Below, piece by piece: positions 42,915 to 64,000 of a DNA stretch of 64,000 nucleotides (the first letter of the stretch is position 1; every line of letters begins with the position of its first letter). The DNA is from Chytriomyces cf. hyalinus JEL632. Taxonomy: Eukaryota; Chytridiomycota; Chytridiomycetes; Chytridiales; Chytriomycetaceae. Made by a program: the position numbers and the translations under genes. Below the pieces are notes generated by a model. The model was not told the DNA's origin, ran no database searches, and saw only the letters and a list, made by a program, of their open reading frames with translations. The stretch is from positions 45,847 through 109,846 of the forward strand of contig JAIWWG010000095.1 in NCBI GenBank assembly GCA_025435555.1, read 5' to 3'.

Positions 42915-42941
42915 GACAGCCTTTTTTCGACTTTCTTGATC

Positions 42942-45368: not shown

Positions 45369-46260
45369 TGCCACCAAAACAAAGTGGCTCCAAAACACAG
45401 CAAAAGCCCTGCAAATCAGCAGGAGTCAATGCGGCAGCCATAGGAGAGCCTGGGAATGTGCAAGGAGAGGGGCTGGGGGAAGGTGCATTGGAGGGAAAGT
45501 GGTGCAAGAGGAGATGTAGGCAGAAAAAAGAAGATTCACTTTAGTGCAGGGATGGACATTGATCTGCTGAAGGAGGTTGTCAATGAGGAGCCATTTGCAG
45601 CTTCGCATGGGGCTGTCACTGGAGCATGGGCCACAGTGGCATCCAACTTAAACACTGTCTGGGGATCTGGACCACTCTGCTGCAGGGTCACAGGACCCAT
45701 GTATCAGAAGCGATTCAAAGCGCTCATGGATGTCTTTTGCAAGGAGGAATTGGATGCACTGAAGGCATCTGGAACAGACAAAAAATCTGGACAAAGAGAA
45801 GAAGCTGAAGACGAGAGAAGAGATTGACATGACAAGAAGCTGGAAGATATCAAAAAACGCGAAAGCAATGGAAATATTGTTCATGAAGGCTGCTGTTTGC
45901 ATGTTTATCTGACAAAGTGTCAGATGCAGCATCTGAAGCAAGCAGTGATCAGGAGCCCAAAAAAAAGTGAAGGTATTCTTGTAGGGAGTCAGGAAACAGC
46001 AGTGACTTGGTGAAGCCATAGTAGGACTTGCTGCTGCAATTGCACCTGCAACTGGAGATGCAAAGTCAAAAAGAGGAAGCTGGAGCTGGAGGAGTCAAAG
46101 CTTGCGTTTGAACGAGAAAAATTTATGGCTGAGCTGGGAAGATTCAAAGAAAGGAAAAACTGTTTGAACGGGAGGAAAGACGCAAAGAAAGAGATGAACG
46201 GGATGCTCATAGCAAGCAAATGATGGAAATATTTCAACTGTTGGCAAAGCACTTTAATAA
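45369..46260 (+). pseudogene. Harbinger-type Myb/SANT companion gene, decayed
   Basis: Starts with MPPKQSGSKTQQKPCKSAGV, and after a frame change near 45520 reads FSAGMDIDLLKEVVNEEPFA, GAVTGAWATVASNLNTVWGS and KRFKALMDVFCKEELDALKA. This is the Myb/SANT-like DNA-binding protein that accompanies fungal Harbinger transposases. The coiled, charged C-terminus (KRKLELEESKLAFEREK-like text near 46070-46140) is broken by more frameshifts. It is convergent with the transposase relic at 46254-47380. Confidence 0.75.
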
Positions 46261-47380
46261 AAATAACGTTGTTTTATTAATTTAAATTGGAAGAGGTGCA
46301 GAGTGTAAATATTCTTGTGCAGTAGGGGTGGGATTTTAAAAAAGTCAGAAATCTGATTTCCTCTGTTCATGCACATATGTACATTTGTCAGGATGCATGC
46401 TACAGAGTAGTAAACAGCAATGGGCTGTATCCAAAGCTTTAAATTTTTGCTGTAATCACAGAAAGCCCAGTACTTTTCAATCAATCCGAATCCCCATTGA
46501 CAGATACGCGCACTGAGCTCATAGAGGCATTGAAAATTTCTTTTTGAGGGTCTGAATATGTGCACATGAAAGGGGAAGTCATCCAAGAAAGCAGGATGTA
46601 TGCTGGATCCCCATAAATAACATATGTTATTCCATTATGATGCAACCAAATTGGCATGTTTTCCTTCAAGCCACTTTGTCGCAATAGATGCAAATCATGC
46701 CGAGGAACCTGTTTCAGGGCCATATAAATATGCGATGATTCTGTCGGGACAAGTAATTGCTCGAAATTTAATTGCATGTTTTCGCTTGTGTCCATTGAAC
46801 ACAGCTTTTTGCACACCTTTTCCTGGTCTGGATATTGCACAGACAGTACCATCAATAAACCAACACATGTGTCCAATGCGCCACCAGCATCATGAACTGC
46901 AGCAGCAAATTTTTGAAGAGTCCTCCCATTCAAACAAGTTGTATCCCAGCAGAGAATGTGCTTAAAACGGTTATAAACAAGAAACAGCATTTCATTGATG
47001 ATTTCTGATAAGGCTTCATGGCTGCGTCCAAAAAACCCGGTCAGCTCTCCCAGTCGATTTGGATACGAAAGCCATTTCAGTAAAATGCAAGTTGCCTCAA
47101 TAGCAGATACATTATAGCGGTTTTGAGTGATGATTGCAGAAGGAATTTCGAGAAGCCCTGCAAGATCATAAATCTGACTCTTTGTAAATCTGAGGTGAAA
47201 GATACTTGTCTCATTGTCCACACTGTTCAATGAAAACCGGGATTTTGGGATCACATTGTAAGTCCAAAAATTTGGCAATGCGATGGACAAACTTGATTTG
47301 TTTCGCAAAGCGAAAAAAACACTGTTCCCGCAGGACAAAACAGACCAATCCAAGGAGGTAAGATCTGCAGCTGTACTCAA
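46254..47380 (-). pseudogene. PIF/Harbinger transposase, frameshifted
   Basis: Reads on the minus strand as a Harbinger (DDE_Tnp_4) transposase: LRFTKSQIYDLAGLLEIPSA, LLKWLSYPNRLGELTGFFGR, SHEALSEIINEMLFLVYNRF, then after a shift near 46870 FIDGTVCAISRPGKG (first catalytic Asp), a shift back near 46700 to RHDLHLLRQSG, and VIYGDPAYIL (second Asp). The C-terminal KNLKLWIQPIAVYYSVACIL follows a further shift near 46490. Otherwise complete, it is inactive as written. Together with the Myb/SANT relic it forms one element of about 2 kb. Confidence 0.8.
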
Positions 47381-47850
47381 TCTGATGGCAACACTCCAGG
47401 CTCTTCATTCAGCACAATACACAGCATCAAACGTCAGTTACTGGCTTGGGCAAACTGCATCCAGTCACAGGAGGAAGACATGCAAGAGCAACTTGTCAGA
47501 GAGTGTCCCCCATCAGAACTGATCATGCATTTCCAATTAGCAAATACTGATGAAGCTCTCCACAACTAAATGATAATGCAGTCCAATGAGGTTGCAATTC
47601 GACAGAACGAAACTGCAATTGAAGGCTATGAGTGCACTCTTGCATGCTTTGGATGACGCGGAAGCTCAAGCCAAACATGTGCTTCATGAGTTAAAAATTC
47701 GTCTCAGTGTTTTGATGGATTTCAGCATGTCCCTGTAGCCTTGGGAGGTTGGGAACAGTTTGGACTTGCTGGCCAGAGTGGGATTGCAAGAAGATGTTGA
47801 CCACATGTAACTTGGGCTGGACTATATTGTTGATCTTACAAATAAACCTG
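47345..47850 (+). pseudogene. relic of the Tc1-like element's accessory gene
   Basis: Translates in part as RSAAVLNLMATLQALHSAQY then TASNVSYWLG, resembling the accessory protein at 54123-55115 (DTVTTLKEIHGTRYVAADVH). It lies convergent to the decayed transposase at 47859-48905, the same order as in the open element. Several stops follow. Confidence 0.5.
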
Positions 47851-47858
47851 AGTACAAG

Positions 47859-48905
47859 CTAATCCAAACCAGGCATTTCAGCAAGGTCCATTTTGAATGC
47901 AACACTGGGAAAGAATCCATGATTACCATAACCACACTTCCCAAAGATCTTTGTGAAGTCACAGTTGGCAAATTTCAACAACACCAGAGCAACAACTGAC
48001 AGCAAATCCCATCGGTCATTCTCCTTGTACTCCTTCTGAAGCTCTCCTTTGATCAAGCCAAAAACAAGCTCAATCAGATTGAAAAATGGACAGTAAGCTG
48101 GCAAAAAATAGGAAAAATCCCAAGTGAACGCAAAACGTACACAATGTTTTTGTCACAATGAATCCGGGCCCTGTCCAAAATCCAAACTGAATGCTGCCCA
48201 GGGTATTGCTGAACATTCTGACTCAATGCGAATTCACGGCAGGATGCAGTAAGCTTTGTGCAATCAAAAGTGCCTTCAGTTGCAAATGTATTGAGCAAGC
48301 CACTGATTCCAATGAAACAGAGGAGTGAGACACAGCTTGCAAGTAAATTCACCGCGATAGATCAGCCTCTCTCCACGCAGTCCATATCCGCGTTTCACAA
48401 GCATGTCCCGATTGTCAAATGAGACTTCATCCAGGAAGACCAAATTTTCGAGAATCCAAGGGAGGGTAATCATTTCTTCAGTGAATTGAACAATGCCCTC
48501 TTGGCTAATTTGGAGTGCTCGTTGTTCAAGGACTTTCCACATGAGGCCAGCCTCTTTGAGTGTATACGAGATTGATGATGTTGCTATGGCGGAACCAGGA
48601 TACTGCAATGCAAAAAGTTCCTTTGCTTGTTTGTGAAGGAGAACAGGTCTCTTGCGATACAGTTTGACAAGCCACTGACGCCGCTCTGGACCATTCTTTT
48701 TATACACCTTTGCTCTTTGTGCCCATTCAGTTCCATCCCCCCTTTTGTACTGATCAATCCAGCTGGTAATTGTCAAACCACCCTTCCCAAACATAAGGGC
48801 AAGTTTGGCCCTGTTTGTGAAGCCCTGGTAGTATTACATGTACAGGCAATGGGAACTGACTTCTGGGGTGGCCTGTTCTTGAAGCACTGTGCGCAGAATG
48901 TCCAT
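47859..48905 (-). pseudogene. Tc1/mariner-type transposase, decayed
   Basis: Three consecutive frames match the open transposase at 53034-54092: NGPERRQWLVKLYRKRPVLL, SISYTLKEAGLMWKVLEQRA and LENLVFLDEVSFDNRDML, then GTFDCTKLTASCREFALSQN and WILDRARIHCDKNIVYVLRS, then MPAYCPFFNLIELVFGLIKG. Changes include a TAA early in the gene (CLYM-stop-YYQ), frameshifts near 48320 and 48110, and an Asp-Gly to Asp-Arg change next to the second catalytic Asp. The copy abuts the TTA target site of the Harbinger element that starts at 48926. Confidence 0.85.
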
Positions 48906-49099
48906 TGAGTGGTGGGGGGAAATTAGGGGTAGTTTATAAAGGCTGATCGGCAAGAAAATCGAAAAAGGATTGAGAAACTTTTGAAAACAAATCGAGAAAG
49001 TATTGAACGGTTTTTTCTCAAAAATATCTCAATCCCTGCTCGCGACCAGGGATTGACTTCAGGATTGACTTCAAAAATGCAGCGTTTTTTTCTTATTCG

Positions 49100-49600
49100 A
49101 TTTATTTAATCACCGTCACGTGGAGGCCACAAGCCCAATTGAACAGCTGCCAATCCACCACCAGCAACCCACCAACCACCAATCCACCGCCATGCTGCCT
49201 GCTTGACAAAGCAGGCATCCGTCCGCATCGTATGCCAGACATTCAGTCCAGCTGCGTGTGAGAGTGACTGGCAGTAAAAGGAGAAGGCATGTTGGGAAGC
49301 AGATTCAAAGCAGTTGGTTGCATGAGGGACAGAAGGTAGCGGAAGGAGGGAGGAATCCCAAAGGGATATTAGCGGCAGAAGGGTAAGCTCTGACTTTAGG
49401 ATAAAGCTGCAGCCGCAAGGTGATGGGTGTTCTGCTGCAAGGGAGGTTGTTCTCTTCTCTTTTTTCACGTAAAAAAAACCGCCTAAACAGCTCTGCCACC
49501 TCACGCACGAATGCAAGACCAACGAGTAACAACTTACCACATGCGCTCCAACCACCAATCTTAACACTGATCATTTCAGCAATCAATCACCAATGTAGAC
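49100..49600. other. left internal part of the Harbinger element
   Basis: No clear exon. A minus-strand frame (KIGGWSACGKLLLVGLAFVR) and the plus-strand counterpart have no recognised domain. Confidence 0.35.
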
Positions 49601-49651
49601 GAATTCCTCGCCGGCCTTCAGTCCACTTACCTCCCGCCACCATCCCAATCA

Positions 49652-51537
49652 ATGTATCTGCAACGCCACAACACCGTCCACCAGCAACAGCTTGGGTGGA
49701 ACCCTTCAGCAGTAAATTCCCATGCCAGCACCTCCTTAGCAGCCAACCCTTGCCCTGCTAACGCAACAAAATCAGCCAATGATCCCCTCTCCAACACTCT
49801 CAACATCAATGCTCTCACTGTCAATACTCATGCAGCCAATACTCATGCAGCCAATACTCATGCAGCCAATACTCATGCAGCCAATACTCATGCAGCCAAT
49901 ACTCATGCAGCCAATACTCATGCAGCCAATACTCATGCAGCCAATACTCATGCAGCCAATACTCATGCAGCCAATACTCCTTTACCAGGTAGCTTTAATC
50001 CACTCAATCCTGGAGCTTCAACCGCATCAGCTGAAAGCAGCCATGTCTTGACCTCTGCCGACACACAGGAGTGAGGTAAAAGCAGAAGAGGAAGTCAGAG
50101 ATCGAAAAAGCTGAAGGCATTTCAAAGAAGGAGGAAGCAAGAAAGAGAAGGGAGTTAAAGCGACGTGAGCGGGACCATGAGAAGAGGCTCAGGGATGAGA
50201 GAACAGCGCGAAAGAGGCAGGAAGCTGCAGAAGAGGCTGCGCGGAAAGTCAAGCGATTCAAATGGACGGAGGAAGCCAGTTTGGAGGTAGCAGCAGTATA
50301 TGTGCAGCTAAAAGATGAGCAGTTGACATTGGAGCAGAACAAAATTGGTTTCACTTCCTTCGTGAAACACGTTGAAACAAACCTCAGTCAACGCAAGGTG
50401 TAGTATTGCATTGATTGGAACTTCCATCAAGATATCTAATGAAAACCTAGCTTTCATATGAAACGCTTGCAAGCATCGATGACACCACAATCATGAATTG
50501 ACATCGTGCATTGTGCTCAACAGTGAAGGTAAAGTCACATTTTAATTGGCACTGCCTGACACAATACCCTGTTTATGCTGATACAATTGCAATGTACAGA
50601 CAATTAAAGATAAATGCAAGCAAACTGGTGGAGGGGGGTTTGCAGACTCACTTGACAAGCATGGGATCAGTCACCAGCTCTTCACAGCTTTTGATGACTC
50701 ATATGGTGATCACCCAGCATTCCAAGGAGATGGAGAAGCATGCAGTCGAACAACGCCGCATCAATGAATCACCAGCCAAATTTCGCAGCCACCATTAGAT
50801 GATGAAGCAGACGATACATCTGGATATGCCTCAGATCACTCTGCGGTGTCCAATATGCAACAGCCCTGTGAAAACCTGGTCAATAGCATTGAGCTGCATG
50901 AGAGCGATCTGCCATTTAATGATGACAGTGATATGTCCAGTGGCAAATTGTTTGATACAAATTTATCTTCTGCTTCTGGCATTCAAAGAATTGATGGTAC
51001 AAGCACGGAAGTGTCAGGAGTAGGAAATCTTGTGGCTCAGAGACCTGATGCTCTGGGTAATTTTATTTCTTAATGCTCTTCCTCTGGTACAAATTATCAA
51101 TGCATTTCCTCATCTACAGTTTTTTCCCAAACAAACTCGCGTGTTTCCTCCATTCGCACTTCAGTTTCCTCGACTTCTCATCAAGCCATGTCCTTGACAC
51201 CGCTTCAAACCTCACCCTTGACACTTCGTCAACCACTCCCTTGACACTTGTGCCAGTGCGTCCAAGAGCGCTTACAGCAGGAGCATCACAAAAGTCGAAA
51301 GCAAAGGCGAATGACGCAGACTCCACCAGCTCAACCGCAAATAGCAGCTACCAAGAGACAATGTTGCTGCAGATGATGTTCGAAATGCGATGGTCTGATG
51401 AGCAGAGAAGAGAGCTTGCTGAGTTGAGGGCAGAGGAGAGGAGGCAAAAGCAGGAAGAACAGGAAGAGGAGCGACGGCTAATCCGAGATGCTCAGAGCCA
51501 GGAAAGGGAGGAAAAAAAGGAGGCACGGGAAGCTTGA
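49652..51537 (+). pseudogene. Myb/SANT-like companion gene of the Harbinger element
   Basis: Several plus-strand pieces in order: an N-terminal low-complexity part (MYLQRHNTVHQQQLGWNPSA) with a 15-bp repeat coding NTHAA ten times; a charged helix and Myb/SANT-like region in another frame (ERDHEKRLRDERTARKRQEA, FKWTEEASLEVAAVYVQLKD, 50110-50400); a middle part with YADTIAMYRQLKINASKLVE (50565); an acidic section (SIELHESDLPFNDDSDMSSG); and a Glu/Arg coiled tail (MFEMRWSDEQRRELAELRAE to 51537). Introns may explain some frame changes (GTGAGGTAAAA near 50072, GTGTAG near 50397), but not all were resolved. It is convergent with the transposase, as in the older copy at 45.4-47.4 kb. Confidence 0.55.
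49824..49976 (+). repeat. 15-bp tandem repeat coding NTHAA
   Basis: Ten perfect copies of AATACTCATGCAGCC, in frame with the companion gene and also open on other frames. Confidence 0.95.
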
Positions 51538-51705
51538 TGAAGAAAGGCGGAATACAATGCAACTTGCTTTTATGGAAGCACTTCACCGAATAACCAAAGG
51601 GAGCTTGCCAGAGATGAAATGATGATCTTTTTCAATACAGTATCTGCACACATGTTTTATTATTCCTCTATTTTGTTCAGTAATCACCATGATCACTTTA
51701 CAGAG

Positions 51706-52920
51706 CTATTCATTAGAAATGCCTGCCAATGTGTTCCTCCAACGCAGCAGTTCTCGTGCTCCTTCAACAATTCTTTCCAGAGTCACCCTTCCATTGTCAC
51801 GTATCTCACCCCTTTCACCAGGTTGCAATGCTCCCCACTGTTGTTCCCATGACTGCAGGTGCAAGTCTGGGTTTCTCCGATTCAAAATGTTGTGTAAGCA
51901 CATACATGCAAAAGCAACATCCCGTGCAAACTCTGGTTTTGCAATTTGCTCGTGCAGCAGAATCCTGAAGCGCCCTTTTAACATTCCAAAGCTTTGCTCC
52001 ACTATGATGCGTGTAGATGAATGAATGAAATTAAATTGACTCTTCCGTTCATTGTCTCCCGCAGCAGGAAATGGGGTGAGCATGAACTCAGACACTGGAT
52101 AGCCAGAATCTCCAATCAAGTATTGCATTTGGCCATTCAAACACGGTGGACATAGAGAATCTGAACATAGTTCCTTGTACAGTGTGGATCGGCGAAATAG
52201 CCTGTTGTCATGTACAGAGCCTGGTCCACCTCCGTAGACATCTCAAAAGTTTCCAGCGCCATCAACAACTGCTTGCATCAAATGGAATTAAAGTTCTTGC
52301 GGTTGATATATGCATTCCAGTGGTCTCCGACAGGTTTCTTGATTGGTATGTGGGTTCCATCAATTGCACCAATTATGCCAGGCAATCCGTGTTTCATGGC
52401 AAATGATGTCTTAATTGCATTCCACCCGTCTGCATCATCATTGTTGGGAAACCTGAAAATATGATGTTGTTGTTAGAATCAGGAGGAGAAGAACATGCCA
52501 ATAAAGAGAGCCTTACGCAATCACTTTGGTTGTGAGATGGTTATTGATCGCATCAATGACTCGATGAAAAGTCTGATGCATGGTTGCTTTGCCATATCCG
52601 AACACATCCCCTAATGTACCATAACCACAGCCTGACCCGAGGCGGTAGAGAGTGATTCCGAGCTGGACTTCCACAGAGAGTGGATTTCCGATGCCAGAGC
52701 CGTCCTTGTGTAAGAACGGATACAACCGATCACGCAACCAGAAGAAGTCCTGGCTGTGGACCCGAAACTTGGATTTGAAGTATGCCTCATCAATGGGGGA
52801 TTGGTTCCACAGGTCCATTTGCTGCATGCGTGTCTTGGCGACTCTTGTTTTGCGCGGCTTGGCTGCACCTAGTCGCGCCTCCGCCTCTTGCCGCTGACGA
52901 CATCTACGAGCATACAGCAT
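51706..52920 (-). pseudogene. PIF/Harbinger transposase with one shift and one stop
   Basis: ATG 52920 opens MLYARRCRQRQEAEARL. Exon 1 ends with KVIA near 52516 and a GTAAGG...TTTTCAG intron leads to FPNNDDADGWNAIKTSFAMK. Then comes PGIIGAIDGTHIPIKKPVGD (first catalytic Asp), the second Asp in MQYLIGDSGYPVSEFMLTPF and the Glu region RIIVEQSFGMLKGRFRI. A frameshift near 52285 and an in-frame TGA at 52243-52245 (GNF-stop-DVYGGG) break the middle of the DDE domain. A helix-turn-helix region (LGDVFGYGKATMHQTFHRVI) precedes the DDE domain. The start codon lies only 4 bp from the nested Tc1-like insertion, so its own promoter is now 2.4 kb away. Confidence 0.85.
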
Positions 52921-53033
52921 ATATTGTGCGTTTAATGAAAAACTGGAATTTTGCGGGTACAGAAAAAGGGATTTCTATATCCGCGCACGCATAATAAACA
53001 GCAAAAGTGCAGTGGGAAGACAGAATCGAAAGC

Positions 53034-54092
53034 ATGGATATCCTCCAGACCGTTAAAGGTCAGCATGCGACTGAAGAGGTCCGCTTTCACTGCCTCTACA
53101 TGTACTACTACCAGAACGTCTCGAAAGTGAAACTGTCGGTCCTCTTTGGAAAGGCGCCCTCCACAATCTCTGATTGGATACTGCAATATGAAGAAGGCAG
53201 AGGAGCTGTACGGAAAGCAAGGGTAACGGCATACGTGCGTCATGGACCAGAGCGCCGTGCCTGGGTTGTGGGCCAATTTCAGAAAAGGCCAGTTATGCAC
53301 CTCTCCGAAGCGAAATCGAAATATGCACTGCGCTATCCAGGCAGCACAATCAGTGCTGCATCTATAAGCATTATCCTTAAAGAGGCTGGACTATCCTGGA
53401 AAGTGCTTGAACGGCGGGCAATACAAATCTGCAATGCTGACGTCATTCGCTTCAGCACTGAACTCATGTCATTCCCCTGGCTTCTCCAGTCTCTTCTCTT
53501 CTTGGACGAAGTTTCATTTGATAATCGGGATATGCTCGCTTCAAAAGGATGGGGGAAAAGGGGCGAATCTCTTGTCTACGTTGGGGAATTTGTTCGAAAA
53601 CCCCGTGTGTCTCTCCTGTGCTTCATTGGACTTCAAGGCATTGTTGAAGTTTGCAGCACAGAAGGAACTTTCGATCGTACTAAGTTTGTTAACGCATGTC
53701 GAACATGTGCTTTGAATGGTGCAGTCAAATGCTTTCCTGGACCACATTCACTTTGGATCATGGACGGTGCGAAAATTCACACAGACAAAAACATTGTTTA
53801 CTACCTCCGTTCCTTGGGTGTCAAGGTCATCTTCCTCCCTGCTTATTGCCCGTTCTTCAATCCAATTGAACTTTTGTTCGGAATGGTCAAGCGGCAAATG
53901 GAAAAAAGTCGTGATGCGAATAAGCACAAGGATATTCTCTTTATTGTATCGACAGTGTTAGAGAAATTCCGTGATTATTCCTTAAAACATTTATTTTCAA
54001 AGTGCGGGTACTCAGAGAGGGGATTTAACGCAGCAACTGGTTTCAATGTTCCACTGTCTTCTTTTAATGGATTTGAAGACAATCAAGAGTAA
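53034..54092 (+). CDS. Tc1/mariner (DDE_3) transposase, DD34E
   Basis: An open frame of 352 residues from the first ATG at 53034. The N-terminal helix-turn-helix part (CLYMYYYQNVSKVKLSVLFG then KAPSTISDWILQYEEG) resembles a paired-type DNA-binding region and is followed by a second HTH (SISIILKEAGLSWKVLERRA). The catalytic triad is in LLFLDEVSFDNRDML (Asp 1), WIMDGAKIHTDKN (Asp 2) and AYCPFFNPIELLFG (Glu). There are 34 residues between Asp 2 and Glu, the classical Tc1 spacing. All three motifs are intact, so it may be active. A decayed relative lies at 47859-48905. Confidence 0.9.
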   Translation: MDILQTVKGQHATEEVRFHCLYMYYYQNVSKVKLSVLFGKAPSTISDWILQYEEGRGAVRKARVTAYVRHGPERRAWVVGQFQKRPVMHLSEAKSKYALRYPGSTISAASISIILKEAGLSWKVLERRAIQICNADVIRFSTELMSFPWLLQSLLFLDEVSFDNRDMLASKGWGKRGESLVYVGEFVRKPRVSLLCFIGLQGIVEVCSTEGTFDRTKFVNACRTCALNGAVKCFPGPHSLWIMDGAKIHTDKNIVYYLRSLGVKVIFLPAYCPFFNPIELLFGMVKRQMEKSRDANKHKDILFIVSTVLEKFRDYSLKHLFSKCGYSERGFNAATGFNVPLSSFNGFEDNQE

Positions 54093-54122
54093 AGCTTCAT
54101 TATCTCAGCATGTTCTTGAAAT

Positions 54123-55115
54123 TTACTCAGCATGGTCAACATCATCTCTGTTTCCAATGCGTGATCGGATTCTTCGAGATCCTTCATTTTCTTGAGGGTC
54201 CAAAGACAAACTGAAGTCCTCCAGAATGGCACTGCGTACTTTGTTGTTCGCAATTGAATATTTCGTGCGAGTAATTGAATCTTCAAGTGCACGTTTTGTT
54301 GAAAGTTGACTTTCAAGAATTTCTTCCAGCTCTGCAAGGATACGGGCATTCTCATTTATAGCAACAAGATTTGCTTGTCTGCTCATCTGAATGTGAATTG
54401 CTGGTTCCGTTAATGCAGATCGAAAGAACTGCATCAGGTGCATCGGAGGAGGGTTATTGACAGCACAATCAATAAGATGCGCATCTCCCGCTACAATTTC
54501 GTTTGCCCACATGCCCCAATGGACATCTGCAGCAACATATCGGGTTCCATGGATCTCCTTGAGTGTGGTCACTGTGTCACTAAAAGCGCTTTCACTTGCT
54601 GCTTGCGCTCGATCAACTTCCAGAGGCTTCAGCAGCTTTTTATGCGCCTTTTTAAATGTCGCGCTGTTGATCATTGCATTTGAGTACTTCTGGACAAACA
54701 CTGTGATAGATTTTGGTGACTTCCAAGCAACCAGCAGTGGAACTGTTAAATCAGCCAAAGGGATGGGTTTCCGTTTACTTGAAGATTCGCTGACAAGGAC
54801 AAACGTATCCATGGTATCAATCGAAAGGTGGCCAATTGAATCCGAAGCCCATGCTGGTTCTCCATTTGCTTGCATCAGAATTTCTCGAAACATGAATGGA
54901 TGAACAACGTCATAGAGTTTGGTTCGAAATTCGTCCATTGAGTGGGATTCGATAGCTATAGCTGCTTGCGGTGGGATTTGCTGTCCAATAAACTCGCGGG
55001 GACAGAGGCAGACAGCATTTTGGTAAAGTCCAATTTGGGCAGGCAAATCCGGCAGCCTGTTTTCATCCTGCTCTTCAGCAATGCGCTCATTGGTGTCCTG
55101 TGAAGGTGTTGGCAT
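54123..55115 (-). CDS. accessory protein of the Tc1-like element, unknown family
   Basis: A 330-residue frame without interruptions, convergent with the transposase and only 30 bp from its stop. The N-terminal half has ordered-looking sequence (VCLCPREFIGQQIPPQAAIA, KLYDVVHPFMFREILMQANG, PIPLADLTVPLLVAWKSPKS). The middle reads TLKEIHGTRYVAADVHWGMW then ANEIVAGDAHLIDCAVNNPP, and the end is a coiled coil (ILAELEEILESQLSTKRALE). I do not recognise the family. Tc1/mariner elements normally encode only a transposase, so a second gene kept open here, with a homologous relic in the other copy, suggests a real function in transposition or regulation. Confidence 0.7.
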   Translation of the reverse strand: MPTPSQDTNERIAEEQDENRLPDLPAQIGLYQNAVCLCPREFIGQQIPPQAAIAIESHSMDEFRTKLYDVVHPFMFREILMQANGEPAWASDSIGHLSIDTMDTFVLVSESSSKRKPIPLADLTVPLLVAWKSPKSITVFVQKYSNAMINSATFKKAHKKLLKPLEVDRAQAASESAFSDTVTTLKEIHGTRYVAADVHWGMWANEIVAGDAHLIDCAVNNPPPMHLMQFFRSALTEPAIHIQMSRQANLVAINENARILAELEEILESQLSTKRALEDSITRTKYSIANNKVRSAILEDFSLSLDPQENEGSRRIRSRIGNRDDVDHAE

Positions 55116-55669
55116 GCCTTGGGGCCAGAATGATTATTAACAGAATTACTTGAACGTTCAGTTGACTCGATCTCACCCGAATTGAGCGTTCTTTGGCTCT
55201 GAGGTGTTGCCATTAGCATTTCGAGTCGAATGCCTATTTTTTCGGATTTTTTGGGGGGTGGGATGGTGCTGGGTCTGTGTTTGCGCGTACAGTTTGGTGG
55301 TGTGCGGAAATAAGTTTTGCGCGGATCGAATATCGACAAAATTCCAGTTTTGTGTTGCGCGCACAATAATAAAGCCACATCATCCATGTGATGTCGCTTC
55401 CAGTCATCTTTTATTTTTTTAAAGGATCTCATACGTATTTGAAATGCGCGAAAGTGTCATGCGCTCATAAACGCTTTTTCTGATTGAACCAGAATCGAAA
55501 AAGTATTGAGCTTCAGAACAGCTTCATTTTTTAGTAAAAAGGAGTTCAGTTCCTTTTCGATATTTTGTGTCAATTGGCTTTATAAACCGCCCCTTATATT
55601 GTGGGATTTTTTGTTTTGCCATTTCTCCAATTTGGCGCTGAACGCACAATACACCCCCAATCTTTTCAC

Positions 55670-55870
55670 GGGCGAAATCGGCCGATTTATCAGTCGAAAA
55701 CGGCGACGATGCGGCGACGATACACGACCGATAAATCGGCCGAGATCCGGACGCTCACGCCATTCGGCCGATGTTCTTCCGATTTATCGGTCGAACATCG
55801 GAAACCTATCGGCCGTATCTCGCAAGCATATCGGCCGCGTATCTGCAAACCAGTCGATGAACGGTCAACC
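55670..55870. repeat. left subterminal array of ATCGGCCGAT-like motifs
   Basis: About ten occurrences of CGGCCGA, GATTTATCGG and ATCGGCCG in both orientations. It is probably the transposase-binding array, as in CACTA-type elements. Confidence 0.75.
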
Positions 55871-56020
55871 CAAAAGCTGGATTTATGGGCAGTAAAATAA
55901 AATATTTATCGTTCGTAAAGTTAAAAATTTATTATGTATAAAATGAGCACTCGTCGCAAGACCAGCTGTCGCAAGACCACCCGTCGCAAGGAACAATGCC
56001 GCTGTTGAGGTGAGCAGCGA

Positions 56021-57152
56021 TTATACCCCTTCGTTCTCATCATTTGAGTCAGCGGCTGCCTGTGGGCCCTGATCTGTGTATGTTGCCAGATCTAAGGCCT
56101 TGATCCGTTCCAGTTCAGCAGGACCCCCCGGCCCAAGACCTGCAATGCGCCTCATCTCCTCGATGAGGATCGCAAAGTAGGGAACCCTCACCCTCAACAT
56201 ACCACGGACTCTGCGCTGTGTGAAGGTGAGTATTTATATTCGTGTCACAATTGCGAAACATCGTGAAACACTTACCATCAACGCTGCACGCTTCAGAACG
56301 TCATTCGTCAACTTGCACCTATCACCGAATACAACTACAGCGTATTTTTGAAGGGTGAGATTAGCGGTGTTTTTATTGTAGTGTCCTTTGATCTATTAAT
56401 GCAAAGTTAGTTCAGCACAACAGAGCCATTCATACTCAATGCCATCAACTCACCTTCTTCACCATAGTGTCGCGAGCGCTTCGAAATGAGCTCTTGATCT
56501 CTTCAATAAACATGGTGCGCTGATCTTCATTGTATGTTGCAATCAAGGGTCCCCATTCTGTTTCAAGGTGATGCTGAATGTGAAGAAGCAGAGTTAATAA
56601 AGATGAATATCAATAGGACTTGTTTTCACCTCTATCTTAGTGAGATTTGGTTTCAGAACGTACTTGGTGGCAGTTGCGACAAAATATTTCTCATTTGCAC
56701 GTTTGATGTCTGTCCTCAACGCTTTTGGAATTGTCTCACGCATCTTGGGCACAAAGCTATTGCTGAGCATAGCAATAGACTGCCTCAAAGCTGTGGTTTC
56801 ACTGTTACTGTATTCAGCCTGCTCTTGAAACTGTTCTTTCAGATCTCTGATCACAGAGACAAAGGGCTGCATATCTGAATTTGAATGAGACAGTGAGGTG
56901 AGAAACATCATGTAGTGAAAGGCAACATACCAATCTGAGTTGATGGACCAGCCTGAAGAGGTGAGTTGGAGAATCTGGCAGGTCCCCTTTGTTGGGGGCT
57001 GAATTGGTCAAACTCTTCATCCTGATGACGAGGGCGGTAAGAAACTGGCTGGCCAGTAGATCCCTGGAAAGTAAAGCTGATTGACCCCTGTGCAGTGGAA
57101 GATACACTGTATCAGATCACCCTTGCATGCTGATCAGTTCTGAGGCTCATTT
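56021..57152 (-). CDS. Plavaka companion gene, multi-exon, unknown function
   Basis: Exons on the minus strand read, in order, MSLRTDQHARVI (57152), SFTFQGSTGQPVSYRPRHQD (57070), then the main exon 56880-56625 with DMQPFVSVIRDLKEQFQEQA, SIAMLSNSFVPKMRETIPKA and LRTDIKRANEKYFVATATKY. Further exons read TEWGPLIATYNEDQRTMFIE (56560) and FGDRCKLTNDVLKRAALM (56320), and a last one MLRVRVPYFAILIEEMRRIA ends at TAA 56021-56023. Exact junctions are not all fixed. The charged helical main exon suggests nucleic-acid or protein binding. It is divergent from the transposase at 57177, with about 25 bp between the start codons, so both must share a promoter. Confidence 0.5.
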
Positions 57153-57176
57153 TTCTTTGCTCCAATTTGTTCCGAC

Positions 57177-60103
57177 ATGCCCAATTTGTTCTGTGATTCA
57201 TCCCAATTTGTGCCCAACATGCATCAAAGTCAGCACAGATGTCCAAACTGCAACACGCCATTTGCTGGGAAACGCTGGGCAAGGAATCTGAACCATCATC
57301 TGCAGCGTTGCACAAATGAGTCGGAATCAGATGATGCTTGGAGTATGCATTCATGCAAGAGTACAAGCTCTGCTCAGCAAAGTTTTGACAGCCTTGCATT
57401 CAACCAAGAGTGCATCAATATGATTGCTGAGACTGAAGCAGGTAAAGGCTTTTTGACTGGGTTAGCAATTTACAAAATGGACTGACAGATCTGTTGCCAG
57501 CAGATTCCAATGATTGTCTCAGTGACAAAAGTGTCAGAGCAGAAGAACAATGCGCAATTGTGGCTGGACCAGATGAACATCACAGCACAAGCGACAGCAA
57601 CAGTATTGATCAGTCAGATAGAACTGACATGGAATTGTCAGACACTGATGATGGTTCTGATATGGACTCTGATGATGGTTCTGATATGGACTCTGATGAT
57701 GCAGCTTCTGACTTTGGATCCAGCCATTTCTACCCATTTCCATCAAGAACACATGCTCTGCTATTCAGTCTGCTATTTGCTAAGCGTCGCCGCATCAGTA
57801 TTACTCAAATGAAACTTCTCTGGGGAATATTTGAACTGCTGCAAGTCAAGTGCCCTTCTTTGAATGCAATTTTGAAGCTACGCAAGAAGCTTTGCAAAGT
57901 GCAGCCCATTGAAAGGAAATCTGCATCAGGCATTCAAATCTTTGTCAGGCCTATTCCTGAGCTCATTGAATCTGCGTTTGCAACACCATCTATTGCAAAG
58001 GAAATCCGATATGGTCCACAGTTATCAACACATCCACAAGAAATTTTTGAGTCATTAGCATTTTCTGTGAGAGCGCCTTGCCTTTGGATGGACAACAATT
58101 CAACTCGATTTTACGCTGGGTGAGATCTTCCTTAAATGTTTTTAGTGATTTAGCTGATATCACTTTTAGAGATACTGTTGTAATGCCCAATTTTGAAGAA
58201 GGCATTATTAAGTGTTTTCCAAAACCTGGTATTGTGGCATTTGGGCAAGTTGCTGAGCATTTCCATTCTGTGTTGTTGCAAAACTTCACAACTACAGTTG
58301 AACTGCATCCAGGGGATGCAATGACACTTGTTCAAAGGGGCAATCTCAGTATTCGAGGTTTGTGTGCAAGCATTTATTTTGAAGATAGTAACTGAATTTG
58401 TTCAGCAAATGGCCGGAAAGTCATCAACTTTCCAGTCATCTGCAGCTCAGATGAAACTTCAGGAAACACAACCAAGCGCTACAACCACTTTGAAAACTTT
58501 TTCGTTATATTTCCATTGCTTCCGCACAAGTTTTATGGTCCTCGATATATCAACTTTGCTGCCACTACAAACACTGGATCATGGTCAGATATTGCTGAGG
58601 TTGTCTTGCACGATTTGAGAGAAGGTAACATTAATCTGTATTTATTTTGACATTGCAGTACTGAATAAATCACCAGGCAGCCCTCTATCTCTTGGAATCA
58701 AAGTACTTGACTCAAGCACCGGAGAGGATGTGATTGTTGTTTCACAATTACTTGCAATGCTTGTGGATAATCCACGTGCAGCCCAAATATGCCATCAAGC
58801 TGGAGCACGAAGTGACTTCAACTGTCGAGTTTGCACTGCACCTATTGGAAGTCCATCCACTTGCATGCAACTTCATCCTTATCGATGGTTATATGAAACC
58901 AAGCAAGTACTGTCTCGAATGGCACAGATGAACAAAACACAATCAGAGTCTCTGAGAAAAGCAACTGGGATAACTGTTCCATCTGAGCACGCCAACATCT
59001 ATCTCTCCCTCCCTGGTTTTTCACCTCATGCGCAAACTCCAGTTGAAATTCTCCATACACTGTTACTTGGAGTCATGAAATACTTGGGGACAGAGTCCAA
59101 AGAAAAGCTGAAGTCAAGGTCTCTCAAACTCAGAGCTGCATCTCTATTTGCAATCATCTCAACCTATCAACACTGTCATTTGTCATCAAAACAAGTGACT
59201 CGCTACATTGGAAGCATGAATGGAAAAGACTTCAAGGGCCTTGCACAAATAGGGCCATTATTCTTCCCTTGGCTTCAGCCAAATCTAACTTGGCTTTGGC
59301 TTGCTGGTGCAATTCTTACGAAACTGGCATATGATTCCAAGTATCCACACTTTGAGTTAAGGTACCGCCATCTCCAAAAGGCTACCATTGCAGTTCAGCG
59401 TCTGTTCCATGTTTCACTGCCATCAGCAAAAGACAAGCTCAAAGTCCATCTACTTTCTCATCTCCCTGATAATTTCCGGATCTGGGGACCACTGTCTCTG
59501 TATGCTGTTGAAGTTCCAGAACAAATGAATGGAGATGTGCGCAAAGACATAGCAAATTCAAATCGGCATTCACCATCAAGAGATGTGGCATGGGCATTTG
59601 CAATTCGGGAAGGGACAGTATCATATTTACGAGGGGCATCAGGAGGAGGGCCTGGATTACTTGAACTTGGAGCAAATTCCATTATAGTCAAGCATTTGTT
59701 CCCTCCCATCAGGCCAGTTCCATCAAGAGCTCGCATTCAGATTGGCAGATTCTTCTTTTTTGACAACTGGGGCCGTATTGGAAAAGTCATTCAACATAAC
59801 GAGCACACCAAAACTTGTCTAATGCAAGAATTAGAGCTGAACGGCCAGTTAACATCATGGAGATTACGTGCATGTAGTTTGCACAACAACTTCTATGTCC
59901 CTGTTGGCAATATCAATGACCAAGCAGATGTCAGTCACGACTGCTGGGAAGAGCAGTTTTTGTGCAGCTGGAGACAAGATGGATCTATTGCACATTCAAC
60001 TTTGAACACGTATTTTCTAAATCCCTTTCGCATGGAATGTCATCACACACTTGGAAGTGCCCAAACAGATGTGTTCCTTGACTTTTTACTCTCAAAAGCT
60101 TGA
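57177..60103 (+). pseudogene. Plavaka-type transposase, frameshifted
   Basis: Exon 1 (57177-57441) encodes a C2H2 zinc finger (HRCPNCNTPFAGKRWARNLN then HHLQRC), usual at the N-terminus of Plavaka transposases. A GTAAAG...CCAG intron joins ADSNDCLSDKSVRAE. The acidic linker (DMDSDDGSDMDSDD) leads to SITQMKLLWGIFELLQVKCP and CLWMDNNSTRFYAGE, with a shift near 58110. GDAMTLVQRGNLSIRG follows. VINFPVICSSDETSGNTTKR, a strong Plavaka signature, needs another frame change near 58400. The long last exon (58690-60103) has DNPRAAQICHQAG, CRVCTAPIG, SPHAQTPVEILHTLLLGVMK and PEQMNGDVRKDIANSNRHSP, matching the C-terminal domain of this group. Some changes could be introns that I did not resolve, but at least one true shift seems present. 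Confidence 0.7.
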
Positions 60104-60700
60104 GATGTTTGTTGCTTCTTTGATTCAATAAAGAATTGAGAGCCTGTCTGAGCACTTGAGGTCCAAGGCCCATGTAGTGTTGCAAAACAAAGGTGAAAGG
60201 AGATGATTTGGTGGAGCAATTGATTGGCAAATAGTGGTTGGTCATGAAATCCTCTCACAAAATAAGAGCGCAGCCTTTTAAGTGTTTTATGTTCAGTCTT
60301 GTCAAAGCCCTCTGTTACGTAATCAGCCTGATCACGTAACTACCGCTCTCGCCTTTCAGCTATATTTGGAACCGTTCTTCACAACATTTTTGGAACCGGA
60401 TTTCGACATGTCGAAATCTCTCTCGCCACTTCCCACGACATTTTTGGAAAACTCTTTATTTAGAAAACTGGAATTCAATATTTAAAGCGCTCCTCGTTCA
60501 CTTGAATAAAGCAGCTTCTCTTACAACTCTTAATTCTCTTAAAGACAATCCTCAGAAAAACTCCTCGTACTCAGAGCCATTCCACACTATTAGCTATTCC
60601 GTCCCATCGTCACTGGGCATGCAGGATAGTCGTGGGAACCCTCGCATCCACTGCGTGGTATGCTGGTTCAAGTCCCCTTTTTGTCACTTTTATCTCTAGC
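60104..60700. other. right internal part of the Plavaka element
   Basis: 3' flank of the transposase with an AATAAA at 60126. No coding exon recognised. Confidence 0.4.
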
Positions 60701-61000
60701 ACCGCTTTTCTGCCGATGAAACGGCCGTTTTTCTCCAGCTCATCCGCCGATGATCTGTGGCTAAAAATCGGGCGACAATCTTCAGTGTCATGCGACCGAA
60801 TAACGGCCGATTTCAAAAGCGGCCGTTTATTCTCCGCCAATCGGCCCGTTTTTTAGCAGTTTATTCAACAGTTTACTGACAGGCAAATCAACCGGTCATC
60901 GTTGCCGAATCGGTGACGATCCCGGCCGACGCCGATTTCGGCCGAAAGCTTTGCCGATTCCGCTCCGATTTCTTTCGCGGCCGTTATCGGTCGGTTTTTT
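60700..61000. repeat. right subterminal array of CGGCCGAT-like motifs
   Basis: Counterpart of the left array: CGGCCGTTT, ATAACGGCCGATTT, AAGCGGCCG and TTTCGGCCGAAAG among others, again in both orientations. Confidence 0.75.
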
Positions 61001-61049
61001 CGTTGGCGGTGTATCCTCCACAAACAAAGCAAAAAAAAAAATTGTTCAA

Positions 61050-61643
61050 ATGAGGCGCCCTGTTCCGACACACCGAAGCCACCATGTCCGCCAATCCATG
61101 CACAAGGGAGACGCTGAGATACCCACGGAGGTTGAACTCTCGTTTCTTGAACTCGAAGCAGTGTTCAAGACGCGACAAGACCGTGAAAAACGGCAGACGT
61201 GGCACTCGCGCATTGTAGCGGAAATGCGACAGCAACTAGTGAAGGAGAGAGGATTGGACGTCACGGTTGCGCAAGACTTGGGATACGTTGGTTCTGTACG
61301 TGTCAATTCTGGCAAGTCGAATGCGGAGCAAGACAAGCAAGAAGAGCAAAACGAACAAGATCAACAAGATGGACAGGATGCGCGGTGGCGTGTTTGCCTG
61401 CACAAGCCAAATGTTGAAGATTTGGACGCGGTCTTTTCTTCCGAACTTCCGGCGACCAATGACGTGAGCCATAACCGACTCTTTGAGCATAGCACCAGCG
61501 CCGTTCATGGCAGCAATGCCTTTCAAAATAACGCTTTTGAACCAGACTTGACAAGCACCAGTGCTGCAAGCTCAATTGACGTAATATCGTTTTCCAGTTT
61601 CGAGGAACTGTTGAACCATTTTCCTCACGCTTCTCTGACTTGA
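61050..61643 (+). CDS. tandem paralogue 1 of a family with C-terminal FEELLNxFP motif
   Basis: An open frame of 197 residues from ATG 61050, no introns. N-terminal basic stretch RRPVPTHRSHHVRQSMHK, then the conserved block KGDAEIPTEVELSFLELEAV and IVAEMRQQLVKER (residues ~24-70), helical and charged. A Gln/Asp-rich linker (EQDKQEEQNEQDQQDGQD) follows, then a second conserved spot, VCLHKPNVEDLDAVFSSELP. The C-terminus is SFSSFEELLNHFPHASLT. Basic head, charged helix and a short acidic-hydrophobic tail (FEELL) suggest a small regulator with an activation- or docking-type motif; that is inference. A Plavaka element ends 38 bp before its ATG. Confidence 0.65.
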   Translation: MRRPVPTHRSHHVRQSMHKGDAEIPTEVELSFLELEAVFKTRQDREKRQTWHSRIVAEMRQQLVKERGLDVTVAQDLGYVGSVRVNSGKSNAEQDKQEEQNEQDQQDGQDARWRVCLHKPNVEDLDAVFSSELPATNDVSHNRLFEHSTSAVHGSNAFQNNAFEPDLTSTSAASSIDVISFSSFEELLNHFPHASLT

Positions 61644-62134
61644 GACTCGTTTATGCACTACTCATTTCCTTTTTATTTCGATATCCCTATTTCCTTTACT
61701 TTTTATGATATCCTTTGTCTTCTCATCCATACTTTGTAATGGCCGGGTTTCAGTGTTGTCAATGGGGTGATGCATGGACGGTCGCTGTTGATCACGCGAC
61801 CAAATCGCAATTAAAGAACATCTCCACAGGCATGCACAACAATTGCTTTGCCGTGACACGGATCACTCATCACGCGTTTCTTTTTTTTTTCATTTCATAT
61901 TATTTAAGAGATGAATACAAAAAATTAAAAAAAAGGCATATGCGCTGTGGAATGTTCTAGTATTTGTTCTTCTGCGGAATACGCGCATATCCCTTAATTT
62001 CTCCTCTTAATTGAGACACAGAGAACCCTTTCTCCAAAAAAGAAAAAAAAGTGCAAAAATTCAGTTTCGAAAATTGGACCATCTCGCGGCGAGTTCTCAA
62101 CAAACACTGGTTGCAAAATAAATTTCACTCCCCA
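61644..62134. other. spacer between paralogues 1 and 2
   Basis: AT-rich with T and A runs; no exon. It serves as 3' end of gene 1 and promoter of gene 2. Confidence 0.45.
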
Positions 62135-62701
62135 ATGACGCGCCATGTACCCGCGCGTAACCACCGGCGGCCATCACGTATCCGTGCAAGAGCTGGGTTC
62201 CTCAAGAAGGGAGACGCTGAGATCCCCTCTGATGTTGAGCTGATACGGCTGGAGATTGAGGCACGGTTCAAGGCACGCATTGACGGCGACAGACAGCGAG
62301 CTTTGCATGCGTGGATAGTGGCGCGAGTGCGGCATCAGCTTGTGGCTGAGCAGCGAGTGCGCGATATCGGCCAACCTTCCATTGAGGATGTATCTAATGC
62401 TGCTGCGGATGTGGATGTTAGCTATCAGCAACAAAGCACTGCATCTCAAACCCAGGACGACCTGCTCTCACATATTTGTCTTCACGTGGCGGCCGAGGAA
62501 GACGAGCTGGAAGCAATCTTTTTATCCGATCATTCAGCCGGCGAAACCACATCCACGCCGATACCACAAACACCGAGCAGCCTTGATACCACCACGGATA
62601 ATGATAGCTATGACCCAATAGGGTTCACTGAAAGAGATTATTTAAATATTTCCAACTTTGAGGAACTGTTGAACGCGTTTCCTCTCTTCCCGGCGACCTG
62701 A
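62135..62701 (+). CDS. tandem paralogue 2 of the FEELLNxFP family
   Basis: 188 residues from ATG 62135, single exon. Head MTRHVPARNHRRPSRIRARA, then the family block GDAEIPSDVELIRLEIEARF and IVARVRHQLVAEQRV. The mid motif is ICLHVAAEEDELEAIFLSDH and the tail is NISNFEELLNAFPLFPAT. Compared with gene 1 the block differs mainly in charged positions (KTRQDREKR against KARIDGDRQR), while the Pro of AEIP, the VEL triplet, the Leu/Glu spacing and the tail motif are kept. No known domain is recognised. Confidence 0.65.
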   Translation: MTRHVPARNHRRPSRIRARAGFLKKGDAEIPSDVELIRLEIEARFKARIDGDRQRALHAWIVARVRHQLVAEQRVRDIGQPSIEDVSNAAADVDVSYQQQSTASQTQDDLLSHICLHVAAEEDELEAIFLSDHSAGETTSTPIPQTPSSLDTTTDNDSYDPIGFTERDYLNISNFEELLNAFPLFPAT

Positions 62702-63019
62702 ATTCACTTTACTTTTATTTCCGTACATGTTTATGTTTATACTATCCCTTCTATAAGATATATATATCTGCATTGTCTCCTTCGTGTTTTTATTTTCGAA
62801 TATGGCCATCAATCCAGCGCTCTCCATCCATTTTACTTTATTGTAAACACAGTGCGTTTGAAGCTGTCAACTCTTGAAGCTCTCAACTCATTGACTCCCG
62901 GACCACGGACCGCGCCATCAAACGGGAAAGTTATTTGCAATGATTGGATCATCCCGTCAATTTTTTTTAATACCAGGCATGCAAAGAAAATGCAGTTACA
63001 TCTTGTAAAAACTATAAAA
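62702..63019. other. spacer between paralogues 2 and 3
   Basis: Intergenic; an in-frame extension of gene 3 runs back to about 62852 without an ATG that looks used. No other feature. Confidence 0.4.
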
Positions 63020-63562
63020 ATGCCACGACAATTCCATTTCCTACAAACCAACGGCCATGTCCGCACACCTGCAAGAGCCGGTATCCGCAAGAAGGGAGGC
63101 GCAGAAATACCCTCCGATGTTGAGCTACATTTGCTTGAAGTCGAGGCACTATGCAAGGCGCGCATGGACGGCGACAGGCTAAAGCATTTGCATTCGTGCG
63201 TCGTGGCACAAGAGCAGCACGAGCTTATGATTGAACAGCGGCAGCGGCAGCAGAGAAGCGACACGCGAGTTTTGGCGAGCAAAGATTCGATGGACCCGGT
63301 TGAGCTTGGGCCGGACCCGTTCTTGTCTGTTTGTTTACATGTGCCAGCAGAGGTTGAGGAATTGGATGAACCAACTGTGCTTCAAGCGTTGCTGCCAGTA
63401 GACGCAACAACCACTCTTTGTGCTGTTAACTCTTTGATACCCGCAGTTGATTTTAATCAACCACAGTTGGTGACAAGTGGTTTCACAAACTCAATTGAAT
63501 TTATGCATTGTTTAAACTTTGAGGATCTGTTGGACGCGTTTCCGCTTCCGTCTCATTTCTGA
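63020..63562 (+). CDS. tandem paralogue 3 of the FEELLNxFP family
   Basis: 180 residues from ATG 63020 (CTATAAAA directly precedes it). Head MPRQFHFLQTNGHVRTPARA, then GGAEIPSDVELHLLEVEALC and VVAQEQHELMIEQRQRQQR. The mid motif is VCLHVPAEVEELDEP and the tail is CLNFEDLLDAFPLPSHF. Upstream in-frame codons could extend it, but the alignment with the other two supports this start. The three genes share orientation and spacing of 0.3-0.5 kb, a young tandem array that could continue beyond the right edge of the window. Confidence 0.65.
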   Translation: MPRQFHFLQTNGHVRTPARAGIRKKGGAEIPSDVELHLLEVEALCKARMDGDRLKHLHSCVVAQEQHELMIEQRQRQQRSDTRVLASKDSMDPVELGPDPFLSVCLHVPAEVEELDEPTVLQALLPVDATTTLCAVNSLIPAVDFNQPQLVTSGFTNSIEFMHCLNFEDLLDAFPLPSHF

Positions 63563-64000
63563 GTTACATACCCATCATCCGTTTTTTATACTTTTGACAT
63601 TCCCTCTTTATTCTCTCCTTTTTCTGCAATCCATGTTATGATTGTCGACATCGTTATTAACGCGTCTGTGAAACGTGCACTATGAATTTTTGCAAGCGTC
63701 TTCGAACATTATTAAACGCCACGTGATTGGATATCGTCATGAAATGCTCCCATCGAAAGGGTGTAAAGACAAATTCATGGATTGTTTATCACAGTTGAGC
63801 CCTTTTTCCCAAATTTTAGGACCCATTCAGGATCAAGGAGAAGCGGGTATCTATCTGAGCAGAGCCGGTGCGGACAAAACAAGAAAAAAAAGACGAGATC
63901 ACAAATAAAAAAAAATAAACCCTGACTTGTTTGCGGCTGTGAGTCACCGACGGAAAACGAAAATTGATGACATTACAGAATCTCATCACCCCGCAAATCG
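63563..64000. other. right edge, nothing recognised
   Basis: No further copy of the conserved block is visible before the end of the window. A 77-codon open frame at 63675-63908 has no recognised domain. Confidence 0.4.

What the first reader, a model, noticed from the sequence alone, without database searches (positions are those of the whole stretch)
61050..63562. Unrecognised tandem gene family with AEIP-VEL block and FEELLNAFP tail
Three adjacent single-exon genes on the same strand encode 180-197 residue proteins that share three separated blocks: a charged helical block beginning KGDAEIPSDVEL, a mid motif (I/V)CLHV with acidic neighbours, and a C-terminal FE(E/D)LL(N/D)xFP. Linkers are freely variable. 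Conservation of three short blocks in otherwise diverged tandem copies implies selection on function. I do not recognise the family. The tail resembles short activation/docking motifs (amphipathic, acidic plus Leu/Phe), and the head is Arg/His-rich, so a transcription-regulator or adaptor role is worth testing.
Basis: partly seen in the sequence, partly recalled or inferred. Interest (0 to 1): 0.75.

Follow-up and report, generated by a model that had tools for sequence, protein, structure and literature searches.

The report
New tandem family of helix-tail proteins
Three neighbouring genes belong to an undescribed family of small, mostly unstructured proteins in this eukaryote that keep one probable long helix and a short tail motif under selection while the rest drifts; it looks like a family of adaptor or regulator proteins, not a known system.

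Summary
Three same-strand, intron-free genes (197, 188 and 180/190 aa) share a core block, a CLH mid motif and an FE(E/D)LL(N/D)xFP tail. They belong to a larger family in this genome: 17 open frames of the same type on four contigs (9 in C181, 6 in C49, 1 each in C221 and C226), plus 6 remoter proteins sharing only the core (one doubtful). No Pfam, NCBIfam or PDB family matches significantly. Selection is purifying and block-wise: in three C181/C49 pairs compared by region, dN is 0.02-0.13 in the core and 0.07-0.14 in the tail, against 0.15-0.33 in the linkers. Two low-depth AlphaFold models show one 40-46 residue helix, a low-confidence acidic linker and a short helix on FEELLN. I read them as small adaptors or co-regulators: basic N-terminus, long interaction helix, tether, C-terminal docking motif. 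A transcription role is plausible but unproven: a published activation-domain rule is failed by all 8 tail-bearing proteins in strict form and met by 3 of 8 in relaxed form, outside the tail. Canonical coiled coil and bZIP are not supported. Lineage specificity could not be tested. In this copy a 5.4-kb transposon-like insertion sits 38 bp upstream of gene 1.

The parts
61050..61643 (+). gene 1 (W1), 197 aa, intron-free, family member with core, mid motif and tail
   Evidence: identical copy at C181:15887-16477 and 67%-identical counterpart at C49:8310-8891
61107..61247 (+). W1 core block (GDAEIP..., about 47 residues)
   Evidence: helix 27-66 in model
61392..61403 (+). W1 mid motif VCLH
61599..61625 (+). 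W1 C-terminal motif FEELLNHFP; FEELL ends 9 residues before the stop
   Evidence: helix 184-189 in model
62135..62701 (+). gene 2 (W2), 188 aa, intron-free
   Evidence: identical copy at C181:14829-15392, 61%-identical counterpart at C49:10783-11367
62210..62350 (+). W2 core block
   Evidence: helix 33-78, block-mean pLDDT 83-88 over residues 31-70
62474..62485 (+). W2 mid motif ICLH
62657..62683 (+). W2 C-terminal motif FEELLNAFP
   Evidence: helix 175-180 in model
62990..63562 (+). gene 3 (W3), 190 aa from first ATG, 180 aa from ATG at 63020 (more likely start)
   Evidence: identical copy at C181:13968-14537
63095..63235 (+). W3 core block (GGAEIP...)
63329..63340 (+). W3 mid motif VCLH
63518..63544 (+). 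W3 C-terminal motif FEDLLDAFP
55652..61011 (.). 5.4-kb insertion absent from the otherwise near-identical C181 copy; imperfect terminal inverted repeats (CACCcCCAAtc / CACCgCCAAcg) and TA on both sides; ends 38 bp upstream of the W1 start codon
   Evidence: its long ORFs 57446-58123 and 58619-60103 have no Pfam match, so 'transposon-like' rests on anatomy

Best explanation
A tandemly amplified, fast-diverging family of small, mostly disordered adaptor proteins, most likely nuclear co-regulators. Shown here: each of 17 members has a basic N-terminus and a conserved block of about 47 residues that models as one long helix (two members modelled); 8 of 17 also have a CLH-like motif in a linker (acidic in 7 of 8) and a C-terminal FE(E/D)L(L/F)xx(F/L)P motif near the stop, which is a short helix in both models. 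Inferred: the long helix packs on a partner (a common partner, or another family member); the linker is a tether of nearly free sequence; and the tail docks into a hydrophobic groove of a second protein, in the manner of activation-domain or other short linear motifs. The genes would thus bring two proteins together, with paralogues and haplotypes differing in linker and surface residues. Tail-less members would bind the helix partner only.
For: Core in 17 of 17 GDAEIP-type members and recognisable in 6 remoter proteins (L20, E21, A24 and D31 invariant in 23 of 23); profile comparisons, each a single comparison, E 6.9e-9 and 2.5e-7 for two of the remoter groups. Core and tail have the lowest dN in the C181/C49 pairs compared by region (3 pairs; 2 have a tail of 22 codons). 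One continuous helix in both models (residues 33-78 and 27-66), a second helix only at FEELLN. Net charge before the core +4 to +9 in 17 of 17; tail -3 to -5 in 8 of 8; FEELL ends 9 residues before the stop in 7 of 8 and 11 in the eighth. No hydrophobic N-terminal stretch (mean Kyte-Doolittle of the first 30 residues negative in 17 of 17).
Against: The strict activation-domain rule of PMC10550315 is met by 0 of 8 tail-bearing members; the relaxed one by 3 of 8, by tiles within residues 89-139, before the tail; the strict rule is met only by two tail-less members, over their core helix. No known DNA-binding domain. No heptad pattern beyond column shuffles (best 304 of 3000; hendecad best 186 of 3000). 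Helical hydrophobic periodicity was near significance only for columns 33-54 with one scale (50 of 2000; four other scales 217-620 of 2000); columns 13-35 peak at 141-164 degrees in all five scales, nearer an alternating (strand-like) pattern than the 100 degrees of a helix. Both models are poor overall (mean pLDDT 56.6 and 53.7, pTM 0.24 and 0.22, 3-sequence alignments). Flanking frames have dN/dS 0.13-0.56 (5 pairs), so the array's 0.21-0.59 is not unusual for the region. No expression data.
Confidence: 0.4

Rival explanations
1. Same anatomy, but the tail is an Atg8-family interacting motif (AIM/LIR: aromatic-x-x-aliphatic, here F-E-E-L or F-E-D-L with acidic neighbours), so the proteins are selective-autophagy or membrane-trafficking adaptors.
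For: FEEL or FEDL in 8 of 8 tails on a disordered tether. The AIM pattern is recalled, not from a call.
Against: The pattern is loose and common; conservation extends beyond it to the L(L/F)xx(F/L)P part, which an AIM would not need. Basic N-terminus not explained.
Confidence: 0.13
2. A self/non-self or mating recognition locus: divergent paralogues and haplotypes whose helices pair selectively.
For: Tandem array with two broadly colinear, strongly diverged versions (C181/C238 and C49) in one genome; fast-evolving linkers; a study of chytrid genomes found no significant blastp hits to MAT genes (PMC6572847, passages), so the slot is empty if this is a chytrid.
Against: Flanking frames are diverged too (dS 0.21-0.38 in 5 pairs, against 0.22-0.46 in five array pairs and 0.88 in a sixth, short one), and an unrelated gene of the window shows the same layout of one near-identical and one diverged copy (C111 96%, C234 pieces 61-88%), so the divergence is not special to this locus. 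The three window genes are identical between C238 and C181 (2,989 bp at 100%). dN/dS is below 1.
Confidence: 0.06
3. A decaying, transposon-rich multigene family with little present function; conservation reflects recent ancestry.
For: Broken copies in both arrays (C181:12702-13247; C49:9514-10231; C49:10248-10451; the C49 counterparts of C181:10637 and C181:34323 lose frame or tail); transposases nearby; an insertion 38 bp upstream of W1; flanking frames show a similar dN/dS range.
Against: dN/dS 0.21-0.59, with 0 of 1000 bootstraps at or above 1 in 6 of the 7 pairs bootstrapped and 7 of 1000 in the seventh; core and tail change less than the linker in the close pairs.
Confidence: 0.13
4. The core is a classical dimerising coiled coil next to a basic DNA-contact region (a bZIP-like transcription factor).
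For: Basic N-terminus followed by a long modelled helix; weak matches to the ZMYND8 coiled coil (Pfam, 2 of 23 cores at E <= 1, best 0.0025; PDB E 8.2 and 8.6).
Against: Heptad test not significant; a proline conserved in 17 of 23 rows separates the basic stretch from the helix, and both models start the helix just after it; no Pfam bZIP match.
Confidence: 0.1

Closest known systems
Acidic activation domains / coactivator-docking short motifs (rule of PMC10550315; abstract, outline, sections 7 and 11 and 12 passages seen)
   Same: acidic, Phe/Leu-rich short helix in a disordered region, here next to the C-terminus
   Different: C-terminal 39-residue tiles have charge -3 to -7 and 6-11 W/F/Y/L in the 8 tail-bearing members, short of the rule's -9; the paper's p53 example (-6, 8) is also outside the boundary; no DNA-binding domain found
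ZMYND8 coiled coil (Pfam PF23460; PDB 9wv4, 5mq4)
   Same: similar run of residues (LQxLHxxxxxEM...) in the second half of the core; weak matches in Pfam and PDB
   Different: 2 of 23 cores at E <= 1, best 0.0025, and E 8.2-8.6 in PDB; no significant match to any other domain; heptad test not significant
RAYH candidate-effector family of Synchytrium endobioticum (PMC6572847, passages seen)
   Same: expanded, highly variable proteins held together by a short conserved motif, associated with repeat-rich DNA
   Different: different motif (RAYH in 0 of 20 proteins); no hydrophobic N-terminus here

Membership tests
any Pfam-A, NCBIfam or PDB sequence family | significant profile match | tested here: not met
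   Pfam: 1 of the 3 genes has a match, E 0.015, below cut-off; 0 of 3 in NCBIfam; 17 full-length members, best E 0.015; 23 cores, best E 0.0025 (cut-off not shown there); PDB best E 0.57 for the core profile and 0.77 for the three-gene profile
acidic activation domain | 39-residue tile with charge <= -9 and W+F+Y+L >= 7 on or above the VP16-CITED2 line (PMC10550315 eq. 1) | tested here: not met
   0 of 8 tail-bearing members; relaxed eq. 2: 3 of 8, against 131 of 1600 shuffled proteins; eq. 1 met by 2 tail-less members over the core
acidic activation domain | activates transcription when tethered to DNA | not testable with these tools
   needs a reporter assay
bZIP | heptad zipper contiguous with a basic helix | tested here: not met
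   heptad statistic not significant; modelled helix begins after the proline, not in the basic stretch
AIM/LIR adaptor | [FWY]xx[LIV] in a disordered, acidic context (recalled) | tested here: met
   FEEL or FEDL in 8 of 8 tails; the pattern is weakly specific
AIM/LIR adaptor | binds Atg8-family proteins | not testable with these tools
   needs a binding assay
MAT HMG / alpha-box protein | HMG or alpha-box domain | tested here: not met
   no such Pfam match among the members scanned
secreted effector | N-terminal hydrophobic signal sequence | tested here: not met
   first 30 residues hydrophilic on average in 17 of 17; no signal-peptide program was run

The most novel reading that the evidence does not exclude
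The core is a new helical interaction domain whose paralogues pair combinatorially, so that one tandem locus encodes a set of mix-and-match two-ended regulators (helix partner plus docking tail), possibly with a recognition role between haplotypes.
Probability: 0.15. Interest if true: 0.65.

Novelty: new member of a known kind. Interest (0 to 1): 0.4.

Why it matters
Short conserved blocks in otherwise drifting sequence are a natural mutagenesis of an interaction helix and a docking motif: 17 paralogues and diverged copies tell which residues matter. If expressed, the family gives a small, testable adaptor or regulator system. It also shows a family that present domain libraries do not hold. 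As a kind of thing, an orphan tandem family is common; the interest lies in the clear block-wise selection.

Tried and rejected
Family libraries (Pfam, NCBIfam) and PDB sequences: no significant match. The one PDB hit of the three-gene profile, nitrophorin 4, is a chance-level 'CLH' match at E 0.77. Scans for relatives in viral contigs and prokaryote genomes with alignment A4 and with the C226 member gave pattern matches (90 and 9 stretches in viral contigs, 90 and 52 in genome contigs) but no confirmed relative.

Coiled coil: heptad and hendecad statistics against column shuffles were not significant overall (heptad best 304 of 3000, hendecad best 186 of 3000). A hydrophobic-moment test gave no peak near 100 degrees for columns 13-54 with any of five scales; only columns 33-54 with one binary scale reached 50 of 2000 shuffles; columns 13-35 peak at 141-164 degrees. 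I had expected a clear amphipathic helix.

Mating-type idea: attractive because C181 and C49 are two diverged versions of one array, but the flanks and other genes are diverged in the same way, so I keep it low.

Literature: the motif letters gave 0 papers. Listings of searches on chytrid genomes, mating type, ploidy and gene family expansion showed no description of this family (only PMC6572847 of these was opened, for passages). A search on activation domains led to PMC10550315. No fold search was run: the one attempt met a full queue, and a single helix with mean pLDDT 56.6 would have matched meaninglessly.

Rows dropped before counts: broken or frame-split pieces of the family in C181 and C49 are not among the 17; the three C238 genes are counted once through their identical C181 copies. 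Two of the 17 (C49:6902 and C49:11643) are open frames that lose the frame or tail of their C181 counterparts; three of the six C181/C49 ratios use N-terminal slices only.

Full report
What is there. Three same-strand genes fill the last 3 kb of the window. Their proteins align over a basic head, a core block (KGDAEIPSDVEL...), a (V/I)CLH motif and a C-terminal FE(E/D)LL(N/D)xFP. The third gene probably starts at 63020 (180 aa), where its start aligns with the other two. No Pfam, NCBIfam or PDB family matches them significantly.

A larger family. The window lies at the end of contig C238 of a 37.8-Mb genome in 242 contigs. Searches of that genome with W2, W1 and W3 gave 25, 25 and 21 matches, and the three-gene profile picked the open frames listed. 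After setting aside broken pieces and the three C238 duplicates, 17 open frames of the GDAEIP type remain: nine in C181 (9 of 9 on the minus strand), six in C49 (6 of 6 on the plus strand) and one each in C221 and C226. The core is in 17 of 17. A loosely defined mid motif is in 9 of 17 by my reading; strict CLH is in 5 of these 9. Both patterns also match C49:11643 at a stretch past its frame break, which I left out. The tail is in 8 of 17, all 8 also having the loose mid motif. Six further proteins (C221:149595 and 150625, C226:57297, one in C197, two in C28) share only the core. Profile comparison supports the C197/C28 group (E 6.9e-9) and the C221/C226 long proteins (E 2.5e-7) as relatives (single comparisons). 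C221:149595 is doubtful: searched on its own it found only itself and one match at E 0.34, and it sits on a long branch in the tree.

Chance and selection. Strict core and tail patterns, written after the fact, never occurred in 20 random replicates of the same DNA. Between C181 and C49 counterparts dN/dS is 0.21-0.59 in the six pairs measured, three of them on N-terminal slices. In the three full-length pairs compared by region, dN is 0.12, 0.13 and 0.02 in the core, 0.30, 0.33 and 0.15 in the linker, 0.40, 0.32 and 0.09 in the head, and 0.07 and 0.14 in the tail where there is one (22 codons each, with low dS there too, 0.19 and 0.30). Between the three window genes dN/dS is 0.33-0.41 with dS near or past saturation, so those values are rough; 0 of 1000 bootstraps reached 1 for each. 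One pair (W2 with C49:10669) had 7 of 1000 bootstraps at or above 1. The two C221/C226 pairs are saturated at synonymous sites and gave no ratio. Five flanking frames had dN/dS 0.13-0.56 (these frames were not checked for introns), so the overall ratio of the family is not unusual for the region; it is the contrast between blocks and linkers that speaks for function.

Structure. AlphaFold with only the three window proteins as alignment gave one helix at 33-78 of W2 (block-mean pLDDT 83-88 over residues 31-70) and at 27-66 of W1 (69-80 over 21-60), and a short helix exactly at FEELLN in both (tail block 64 and 72); the rest is mostly below 60 (mean pLDDT 56.6 and 53.7). The core is thus most likely a single long helix that begins just after the conserved proline. 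I expected an amphipathic coiled coil; the heptad and periodicity tests do not show one, and the first half of the core even alternates in a strand-like way. So the helix is a model result, not settled.

How it most likely works. Shown: basic head (+4 to +9 before the core in 17 of 17), net negative linker in 7 of 8 tail-bearing members, acidic and hydrophobic tail at a nearly fixed distance from the stop, no hydrophobic N-terminus. Inferred: the helix binds one partner, the tail docks on another, and the linker is a tether. Transcription is the leading setting because of the basic head and the tail's make-up, but the published activation-domain rule is failed in strict form by 8 of 8 and met in relaxed form by 3 of 8, by tiles within residues 89-139, in the linker before the tail; two tail-less members meet the strict rule over their core (rule seen in PMC10550315). 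An Atg8-type docking motif is a fair rival.

Genome setting. Window 41123-55651 and 61012-64000 match C181 at 99.75% and 100%; between them the window has a 5,360-bp insertion with imperfect inverted ends and TA on both sides, ending 38 bp before the W1 start codon. Its two long open frames have no Pfam match. C49 is broadly colinear with C181 through the array and both flanks, with gaps such as C181:16.6-32.5 kb; most of the longer flank alignments are 81-89% identical, others lower. A helicase gene elsewhere in the window likewise has one 96% copy (206 of 299 residues) and one diverged copy in pieces at 61-88%, and at least seven pairs of proteasome-family places share an exon layout (my reading), so much of the genome may be present in more than one version. 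The array's divergence is therefore not special. Losses of frame or tail in single copies of both arrays point to birth-and-death evolution.

Limits. No fungal proteome, transcriptome or AlphaFold database was on hand. The collections scanned (IMG/VR viral contigs, GTDB prokaryote genomes) are the wrong place to expect relatives, so their silence says little. That the family is not in print rests on one search for motif letters and the listings of four topical searches of an open-access library.

Verdict. A real, unnamed gene family with convincing block-wise conservation and a plausible two-ended adaptor design: a new member of a known kind (orphan tandem families), of moderate interest.

Noticed in passing
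window 55652-61011: Transposon-like insertion present in C238 but absent from the otherwise near-identical C181, 38 bp upstream of the W1 start codon: a natural promoter-interruption allele.
   Followed up: partly
window 41123 (C181:31047): Window and C181 are 99.75% identical up to this point and then part ways: a haplotype rearrangement or an assembly join.
   Followed up: no
window 37012-39039: Open frame with, by eye, a hydrophobic N-terminal stretch and about 11 tandem 129-bp (43-residue) repeats QAQIQALQAQQVGA....
   Followed up: no
window 51706-52239 and 53076-54089: DDE transposase frames (Pfam DDE_Tnp_4 and DDE_3) in the stretch between 42 and 55 kb.
   Followed up: no
window 17331-18992: F-box plus leucine-rich-repeat frame; similar LRR frames, by eye, at 649-2494 and 9613-10712.
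   Followed up: no
L063 (C197), L064 (C28): Core-bearing remote relatives; two of the three share a second block (RTWTLNAVDV..AQTLIRTLLR, partly kept in the third) and 3 of 3 end in LGFD or LGFDE, another possible docking end.
   Followed up: partly
L059 and L060 (C221, C226): C2H2 zinc-finger frame near core-bearing genes: Pfam-confirmed in C226, by eye in C221, with conserved DNA blocks between the two contigs.
   Followed up: no
window 49822-49979: Perfect 15-bp repeat, 10.5 copies, coding NTHAA repeats.
   Followed up: no
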